The notes under the pieces are model-generated. The model was not told the DNA's origin. It ran no database searches and worked only from the letters and a program-made list of their open reading frames with translations. This document shows positions 62,105 through 64,000 of a stretch of DNA of 64,000 nucleotides, one piece after another. The translations under genes were made by a program, and so were the position numbers. The stretch's first letter is position 1; the number at the start of each line of letters is the position of its first letter. The stretch is from Proteus columbae (lineage in GTDB: Bacteria > Pseudomonadota > Gammaproteobacteria > Enterobacterales > Enterobacteriaceae): positions 3,782,001-3,846,000 of the forward strand of contig NZ_CP043925.1 in the NCBI RefSeq assembly GCF_009914335.1, read 5' to 3'.

Positions 62105-62827
62105 ATGCAAGAAAGTTATAAAGTGCTAATCGTGGATGATGATTTACGTCTGCGTTCACTCTTAGAGCGCTATTTGACAGAGCAGGGTTTTCAAATCCGT
62201 ACTGCTGCAAACGCCGATCAGATGGATCGTCTGCTCACTCGCGAATCTATTCATCTTATTGTGCTCGATTTAATGCTTCCTGGTGAAGATGGCCTATCTA
62301 TTTGCCGCCGCTTAAGAAGCCAAAACAACCCTATCCCTATTATTATGGTTACTGCGAAAGGGGAAGAGGTTGATAGAATTGTTGGACTTGAAATCGGGGC
62401 TGATGATTACATCTCAAAACCCTTTAATCCAAGAGAACTACTAGCACGTATTCGCGCAGTTCTTCGTCGTCAAGCAAATGAATTGCCTGGCGCACCTTCA
62501 CAAGATAACGCCATTATCTCTTTTGGTAAGTTCAAGCTAAACCTTGGTACGCGTGAAATGTTCCACGAAGAAGAGCATATGCCTCTAACAAGTGGTGAAT
62601 TCGCCGTATTGAAAGTACTGGTATCTCACCCTCGTGAACCACTTTCTCGTGATAAATTAATGAGCCTTGCTCGTGGTCGTGAATACAGTGCGATGGAGCG
62701 TTCAATCGATGTCCAAATTTCACGTTTACGTCGCATGATTGAAGAAGACCCAACGCATCCTCGCTATATTCAAACAGTTTGGGGACTCGGCTACGTATTC
62801 GTTCCTGATGGAACCAGCGTTCAATGA
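62105..62827 (+). CDS. ompR: Osmolarity response regulator OmpR
   Basis: A 240-aa response regulator. Receiver domain with phospho-acceptor Asp55 (LIVLDLMLPG) and Lys105 region (SKPFNP); C-terminal winged helix with RSIDVQISRLRRMIE. It controls porin genes with EnvZ. GGGAGC lies 10 bp before the start. It overlaps envZ by ATGA, so the pair is one operon. It is intact, unlike its kinase. Confidence 0.97.
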   Translation: MQESYKVLIVDDDLRLRSLLERYLTEQGFQIRTAANADQMDRLLTRESIHLIVLDLMLPGEDGLSICRRLRSQNNPIPIIMVTAKGEEVDRIVGLEIGADDYISKPFNPRELLARIRAVLRRQANELPGAPSQDNAIISFGKFKLNLGTREMFHEEEHMPLTSGEFAVLKVLVSHPREPLSRDKLMSLARGREYSAMERSIDVQISRLRRMIEEDPTHPRYIQTVWGLGYVFVPDGTSVQ

Positions 62828-64000
62828 GAAGGCTGAGGCTTTCACCCCACAATAAACTGACACGCTCGTTATTTCTGGTTATCTCGCTACTTTTTTTTAG
62901 CTTGATAGCCAGTTATATCATTGTGCAACACCTTATTGTTGGGCCAAGCCTTCAGCAATTTAATAAAGTTTTAGCGTATGAAATACGCACTTTAATGCCT
63001 GAAGAACTGATCCTAGTAGACGGCACTCCGCTAAAAATTTCCCCTGCTTTACGCAATAAAATCTATACCGAACTCGGTATCTCTTTCTTTGATAAAGAAG
63101 CCGCGCTTGAGGAAGGACTCTATTGGGCCAAAATCGATGATGAATTAAGTGAACAGATGTTTGAATATCTGGGAGGGAAAACAGAGATCTGGGTTGAAAA
63201 CACGCTAGAATACCCTGTTTTATGGGTTAATACGCATATGTCCCCCTCACTTTGAATCCGTGTTCCACTCACTGAATTAGGGCAAAACTTCTTACTGCCT
63301 GTTTACCGACAAGCGATTATTTTCATTATTATCGTTGTCGCTTTTTTCTGGCTTTATAATCGTTTTCAAAACCGCCCACTTAATGAAGTAGAGTACGCTG
63401 CGCGCCGTATCGGAAAAGGCGTTATTCCTCCTCCTATTCCTGAATCTGGCTCTTCTGAAATGCGCTCAATTATTCGTGCCTTTAACCAGATGTCATCAGG
63501 TATTCGCTCGCTGGATAATGATAGAACGCTTGTTATGGCAGGTGTTAGCCATGACTTACGTACACCACTGACTCGAATTCGTCTAGCAACTGAAATGATG
63601 AGTCCCGAAGATAGTTACCTCGCAGACTCTATCAATAAAGATATCGAAGATTGTGATGCCATTATTGGGCAATTCTTAGACTATATGCGCACAGGTGAAG
63701 AGATGTCTTTAGAACTGTGTGATATGAATAATCTATTACAAGAAGTCATTTCAGCTGAATCTAATTTAGGAAAAATCAGTGAAGAACATCTTCATTCTGA
63801 ACCCATTAATATCACCGCCAACCCTATTGCAGTAAAACGCGCCCTTGCCAATATGATTGTCAATGCCAATCGCTATGGTAATGGTTGGGTCAGTGTTTCA
63901 AGTGGGAAAAATGAAGAATATGCATGGTTTCAAGTAGAAGATGATGGCCCTGGTATTCCACAAGAAGATAGACAACGTCTTTTCCAACCTTTTGTTCAGG
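62824..64000 (+). pseudogene. envZ: envZ sensor kinase, interrupted by in-frame TGA at codon 144 (3' end outside window)
   Basis: The frame begins MRRLRLSPHNKLTRSLFL and follows E. coli EnvZ through membrane segment 1 (about residues 15-35) and the periplasmic domain, up to THMSPSL at 63231-63252. It then meets TGA at 63253-63255. The same frame goes straight on as IRVPLTELGQ, membrane segment 2 (about 157-180), HAMP, the phospho-accepting His243 in GVSHDLRTPLTRIR, and ATPase motifs NMIVNA and DDGPGIP, to the window edge. In E. coli the codon is Trp144 (SPNIWVRVPLT), and His243 keeps its number, so this is one base change (TGG to TGA) without any indel. The product made is a 143-aa sensor fragment unless there is readthrough or restart. 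A sequencing error is the alternative. Confidence 0.9.

What the first reader, a model, noticed from the sequence alone, without database searches (positions are those of the whole stretch)
62824..64000. Nonsense codon in envZ exactly at the E. coli Trp144 position
The sequence shows TGA at 63253-63255 in an otherwise open frame with no indel: downstream His243 has the same residue number as in E. coli. The change is TGG to TGA. If real, the strain has OmpR without its full cognate sensor, and porin control would rest on other phosphodonors. An in-frame ATG at 63460 (codon 213) could in principle yield a soluble HAMP-kinase fragment, which would act without osmosensing. If it is an assembly error, the annotation must be repaired.
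Basis: partly seen in the sequence, partly recalled or inferred. Interest (0 to 1): 0.75.

Follow-up and report, generated by a model that had tools for sequence, protein, structure and literature searches.

The report
Real stop codon in Proteus envZ
This Proteus genome carries what looks like a genuine, recent stop codon that cuts its salt-sensing protein EnvZ to a third of its length, an ordinary kind of gene loss and therefore of modest interest.

Summary
Confirmed: window 63253-63255 is an in-frame TGA at codon 144 of envZ; the frame is otherwise open to TAG at codon 447. All 19 genus relatives searched have a 446-codon frame with Trp there, as do 80 of 80 fetched enterobacterial loci.

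An assembly error is unlikely: the exact 143-residue product is in the protein database on 6 contigs, the longest 158,307 bases, so none is this 4.1-Mb chromosome. Of 50 matched frames from relative G002, 49 are intact; only envZ is broken.

It looks recent: a near-identical intact EnvZ differs only at residue 33 and the stop.

"Without osmosensing" conflicts with reports on the soluble kinase part (PMC8320348).

Most likely an ordinary loss-of-function allele, perhaps slightly leaky because UGA-A favours misreading by tRNA-Trp (PMC5289835). EnvZ fragments also occur in other Proteus database records. Interest low to moderate.

The parts
62105..62827 (+). ompR, 240 aa, intact response regulator
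   Evidence: ORF; Response_reg and Trans_reg_C in Pfam; 100% identical over 1-240 to four named Proteus loci, L024-L027
62824..63252 (+). envZ codons 1-143: the N-terminal piece that is translated (first membrane helix and most of the periplasmic part, by eye), no Pfam domain
   Evidence: identical protein P0122 in the database
63253..63255 (+). in-frame TGA, codon 144; Trp in 19 of 19 genus relatives and 80 of 80 fetched enterobacterial loci
63256..64000 (+). rest of the envZ frame inside the window (codons 145 on): second membrane helix (by eye), HAMP, HisKA and start of the ATPase; the frame ends outside the window at codon 447 TAG (genome 3846162-3846164)
   Evidence: domain positions from intact P0002
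63460..63462 (+). first in-frame ATG, GTG or TTG after the stop (ATG, codon 213), no Shine-Dalgarno-like stretch before it by eye
63550..63552 (+). His243 codon (phospho-acceptor, by homology)
   Evidence: HisKA 234-291 in P0002

Best explanation
A real and recent single-codon nonsense allele of envZ in a Proteus chromosome. Translation of ompR-envZ makes normal OmpR and a 143-residue EnvZ stub without HAMP, phospho-acceptor or ATPase, so the cell lacks the main OmpR kinase and phosphatase (stop, stub and intact OmpR are shown; loss of activity is inferred from the missing domains). OmpR would then be phosphorylated only by other donors such as acetyl phosphate, and the OmpF/OmpC-like porin should be low and poorly osmoregulated, by analogy with E. 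coli envZ nulls (inferred). Rare reading of the UGA, which is followed by A, by tRNA-Trp may yield a little full-length EnvZ with the ancestral residue (inferred).
For: Sequence and frame. The stop is unique among 20 genus genomes, own included. Of 195 family genomes with a match, 150 rows are shown (counted by hand): 148 list no internal stop, G000 has the TGA, and G108's TAA is its normal end. The identical truncated protein, Ile33 included, is on 6 contigs of at most 158,307 bases, while this chromosome has 4,114,477. Intact EnvZ P0002 agrees at 444 of 446 positions, so no residue downstream of the stop differs. 49 of 50 matched frames from G002 are intact in the window and envZ is the only broken one. 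The stub has no kinase domain. E. coli envZ null: OmpC not expressed, OmpF diminished, the rest thought due to acetyl phosphate (passage of PMC2727453). UGA followed by A is prone to misreading by tRNA-Trp in E. coli (passage of PMC5289835); a tRNA-Trp with anticodon cca is present.
Against: The contigs behind P0122 could not be opened: they may be drafts of this same isolate, or even share its reads. Raw reads were not available. The share of changed codons that are nonsynonymous is somewhat higher for this gene than for other pairs, both before the stop (0.204 against 0.172) and after it (0.128 over 16 pairs against 0.085 over 114 pairs, whose range is 0.018-0.167), which could mean somewhat longer relaxation; the values after the stop stay within range. 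No expression data.
Confidence: 0.82

Rival explanations
1. Sequencing or assembly error; the strain has an intact envZ.
For: Single-codon difference, unique among 20 genus genomes; all the rest of the protein agrees with an intact one but for residue 33.
Against: The same 143-residue protein, with Ile33 (absent from the 16 close relatives), stands on 6 contigs, none of them this chromosome by length. None of the other 49 matched frames from G002 is interrupted in the window.
Confidence: 0.08
2. A working EnvZ at reduced dose: the UGA is read through by tRNA-Trp often enough that the allele is a hypomorph and not a null.
For: UGA-A context and its misreading by tRNA-Trp in E. coli (PMC5289835 passages); kinases are in general much less abundant than their regulators (PMC8320348 passage); residues downstream unchanged against P0002.
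Against: No measurement; no downstream RNA structure was tested; a recent null would also show unchanged residues; the UGA is not conserved (0 of 19 relatives).
Confidence: 0.07
3. Internal re-initiation at ATG213 gives a soluble HisKA-ATPase protein that drives or drains OmpR phosphate.
For: In-frame ATG with both catalytic domains downstream; a 234-residue database ORF with the same start in another Proteus lineage (P0179); the EnvZ cytoplasmic domain is active alone (PMC8320348 passages).
Against: No Shine-Dalgarno-like stretch by eye; ATG213 is 69 codons downstream of the stop and is the first in-frame start; P0179 is only a gene caller's ORF; the reported active piece begins at 180, not 213.
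Confidence: 0.03

Closest known systems
Laboratory envZ null mutants of E. coli (PMC2727453, passage read)
   Same: Intact OmpR without a working sensor; expected low porin, residual phosphate from acetyl phosphate
   Different: Natural allele in Proteus; a stub is left and a leaky stop is possible; the phenotype has not been tested
Truncated EnvZ in E. coli genome records (P0127 and P0131, named by their sources; P0136, unnamed, aligning with E. coli EnvZ)
   Same: Early termination that leaves an N-terminal piece
   Different: P0127 and P0136 end in what looks like a shifted frame (alignment A1), not at a plain in-frame stop; P0131 was not aligned
Proteus EnvZ fragments and internal deletion in the database (P0179, P0181, P0180, P0183, P0008)
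   Same: Broken or altered EnvZ in the same genus (by sequence; only P0008 bears a source's name)
   Different: Other lineages or positions; P0008 is an internal deletion; the DNA was not seen

Membership tests
EnvZ (sensor of the OmpR pair) | Gene follows ompR and is of EnvZ length and sequence | tested here: met
   ATGA overlap with ompR; 446-codon frame apart from the stop; 444 of 446 to P0002
EnvZ (sensor of the OmpR pair) | HAMP, HisKA and HATPase_c in one translated product | tested here: not met
   The 143-residue product has no Pfam match; the domains lie after the stop
Natural nonsense (loss-of-function) allele | In-frame stop where relatives have a sense codon, rest of the frame kept | tested here: met
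   19 of 19 genus relatives and 80 of 80 fetched loci have Trp
Natural nonsense (loss-of-function) allele | Seen in more than one independent isolate | tested here: inconclusive
   P0122 on 6 contigs, but the contigs cannot be opened and may come from one isolate
Natural nonsense (loss-of-function) allele | Loss of osmotic control of porin | not testable with these tools
   Needs cells
Programmed UGA readthrough | UGA conserved among relatives | tested here: not met
   0 of 19 genus relatives has a stop there

The most novel reading that the evidence does not exclude
EnvZ is repeatedly trimmed in Proteus by selection for low or unregulated porin, and here the stop acts as a dimmer: UGA followed by A lets tRNA-Trp restore a few full-length EnvZ per cell with exactly the ancestral residue, so kinase dose and not presence is what changed.
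Probability: 0.08. Interest if true: 0.5.

Novelty: new member of a known kind. Interest (0 to 1): 0.22.

Why it matters
A natural isolate with OmpR but a truncated EnvZ is a ready test of how OmpR runs on other phosphate donors, and a caution for annotation: the gene is more likely broken than mis-assembled. The EnvZ fragments found in other Proteus records suggest that the sensor may be lost repeatedly in the genus, which can be counted in strain collections.

Tried and rejected
Second copy of envZ in the own genome: only one place matched the envZ DNA at E <= 0.001. RF2-like frameshift: the stop sits in CTT TGA, which resembles the prfB slip site (CUU UGA C, PMC5289835 passage), but the next base is A and not C, no purine-rich stretch precedes it by eye, and the +1 frame read meets a TAG after eight codons, so it cannot restore the kinase. 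Suppressor tRNA: the one pattern match in the own genome is a tRNA-Trp with the normal cca anticodon; the rest of that tRNA and other tRNA genes were not examined. Internal starts before codon 213: none of ATG, GTG or TTG in codons 145-212. G108's apparent stop is its normal end. Plasmid collection: two P. mirabilis records matched the DNA at 82% and 8 records matched P0002, each in one piece covering at least 98%; stops inside them were not checked. Two papers opened for natural envZ stops (PMC6137255, PMC9927314, passages) reported envZ missense changes, not stops. A review of porin deficiency (PMC11805372, passages) and a paper on OmpR under acid stress (PMC5686162, passages) gave background only. 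A Xenorhabdus lead (EnvZ with little or no periplasmic part, recalled) gave no usable passage, though shorter Xenorhabdus EnvZ records are. One search gave nothing relevant. The listings (titles and abstract starts only) showed no title or abstract start naming a Proteus envZ nonsense allele.

Not done: species naming of the genome, a genome-wide pseudogene count, structure prediction.

Full report
What is there. The window ends inside envZ. ATG 62824 overlaps the ompR stop (ATGA), and TGA at 63253-63255 is codon 144. In the own genome (one contig of 4,114,477 bases, window at 3782001-3846000) the frame is otherwise open to TAG at codon 447. Only one place in the genome matches the gene DNA at E <= 0.001.

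Is the codon normally sense? Yes. All 19 other genomes of the genus that were searched have a 446-codon frame with Trp at 144. In the 80 loci fetched through ompR (the best 80 of 573; most carry a species name, a few are unnamed MAGs or strains), 80 of 80 have Trp at the aligned place. Two of these 80 (L034 Providencia rettgeri RB151 and L061 Pantoea brenneri) show a frame change elsewhere in envZ. E. coli has Trp in the same column (P0063). In a sample of 295 family genomes, 195 matched and 150 rows are shown (counted by hand): 148 list no internal stop, this genome has its TGA, and G108 has a TAA that proved to be its normal end. The other 45 matched genomes were not shown, and the 100 without a match, many of them small genomes, were not looked into.

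Error or real? Two results speak for real. First, the 143-residue protein, identical to the window's including Ile33, which the 16 close relatives lack, is in the protein database as P0122: 3 member sequences, 6 contigs, longest 158,307 bases. This chromosome is far longer, so at least one other assembly appears to carry it. The contigs could not be opened, so whether they are separate strains is unknown. Second, as a control for sequence quality, mechanical ORFs of at least 100 residues from the matching stretches of two relatives were compared with the window (intact means one match at over 70% identity covering over 95% without a stop; weaker matches counted as none). From G002 there were 54 ORFs: 49 intact, 4 without a match, and envZ with the stop. 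From G009 there were 59: 48 intact, 8 without a match, envZ with the stop, and two with coverage of 0.80 and 0.94 but no stop. Some unmatched ORFs lie beyond the window's ends; the others were not followed up.

Age. The intact protein P0002 (446 residues; 124 member sequences, 26 contigs; source not shown) agrees with this gene at 444 of 446 positions, the differences being residue 33 and the stop itself. Nothing downstream has drifted relative to it. Against this, the nonsynonymous share of changed codons is somewhat higher for this gene than for other pairs, before the stop (0.204 against 0.172) and after it (0.128 over 16 pairs against 0.085 over 114 pairs, range 0.018-0.167). Pairs are not independent, and three distant relatives fell outside the identity limits set. 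The simplest reading is a recent allele.

What the product can do. The stub has no Pfam domain. In the intact protein HAMP is 179-228, HisKA 234-291 and HATPase_c 333-439, all after the stop. OmpR is intact in domains and identical in protein to that of four named Proteus loci. In E. coli without EnvZ, OmpC is not expressed and OmpF is diminished, the remaining expression being thought due to acetyl phosphate (passage of PMC2727453). This genome has one full-length Porin_1 match, a 367-residue frame whose neighbour looks like asnS (by eye), and a partial match in a 402-residue porin-like frame. The expectation, inferred and not shown, is low, poorly osmoregulated porin.

Two escape routes were weighed. 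Restart: the first in-frame start after the stop is ATG213, 69 codons downstream, with no Shine-Dalgarno-like stretch by eye. A piece starting there keeps HisKA and ATPase but has no HAMP match, so it is not a 'HAMP-kinase' fragment. Readthrough: UGA followed by A is prone to misreading by tRNA-Trp in E. coli (PMC5289835 passage citing Engelberg-Kulka 1981). Here the stop is followed by A, the ancestral residue is Trp, and the genome has a tRNA-Trp with anticodon cca. Low-level full-length EnvZ is thus plausible, but its amount is unknown.

Wider pattern. Database ORFs that are C-terminal EnvZ pieces exist for other Proteus lineages: P0179 (234 residues from Met213) is identical at 234 of 234 to the tail of intact G017; P0181's last 164 residues match G011 at 163; P0180 and P0183 resemble the P. 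mirabilis protein P0008 by eye; P0008 itself (421 residues, named P. mirabilis) lacks a stretch between HisKA and the ATPase and is on 30 contigs. These are gene-caller products whose DNA I did not see, so they suggest, and do not prove, repeated breakage. Among the 19 genus genomes searched, none but the window's had a broken envZ.

Verdict. The best account is a real, recent loss-of-function allele, possibly slightly leaky. It is an ordinary kind of event in a well-studied gene. Papers were seen as passages only or as search listings.

Noticed in passing
database proteins P0179, P0180, P0181, P0183, P0008: C-terminal EnvZ pieces and one internal deletion in other Proteus lineages; EnvZ may be lost repeatedly in the genus.
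   Followed up: partly
L034 and L061 (fetched loci), envZ: The envZ match in Providencia rettgeri RB151 and Pantoea brenneri splits into two frames, near codons 315-330 and 240; error or real not tested.
   Followed up: no
L112:333-4164: Directly downstream of envZ lie frames that look like pstS, pstC, pstA and pstB (by eye); in E. coli envZ is beside pckA (recalled).
   Followed up: no
L113:1498-2601 and L114:1399-2607: One full OmpF/OmpC-like porin beside an asnS-like gene (by eye), plus a 402-residue porin-like protein with only a partial Porin_1 match.
   Followed up: no
window 63250-63256: The stop sits in CTT TGA A, close to the CUU UGA C slip site of the RF2 gene; a +1 shift would end after eight codons.
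   Followed up: partly
database proteins P0119 and P0271: EnvZ-like proteins under names of a fungus (Astraeus odoratus) and an isopod (Idotea baltica), P0119 with response-regulator domains as well; perhaps bacterial contamination.
   Followed up: no
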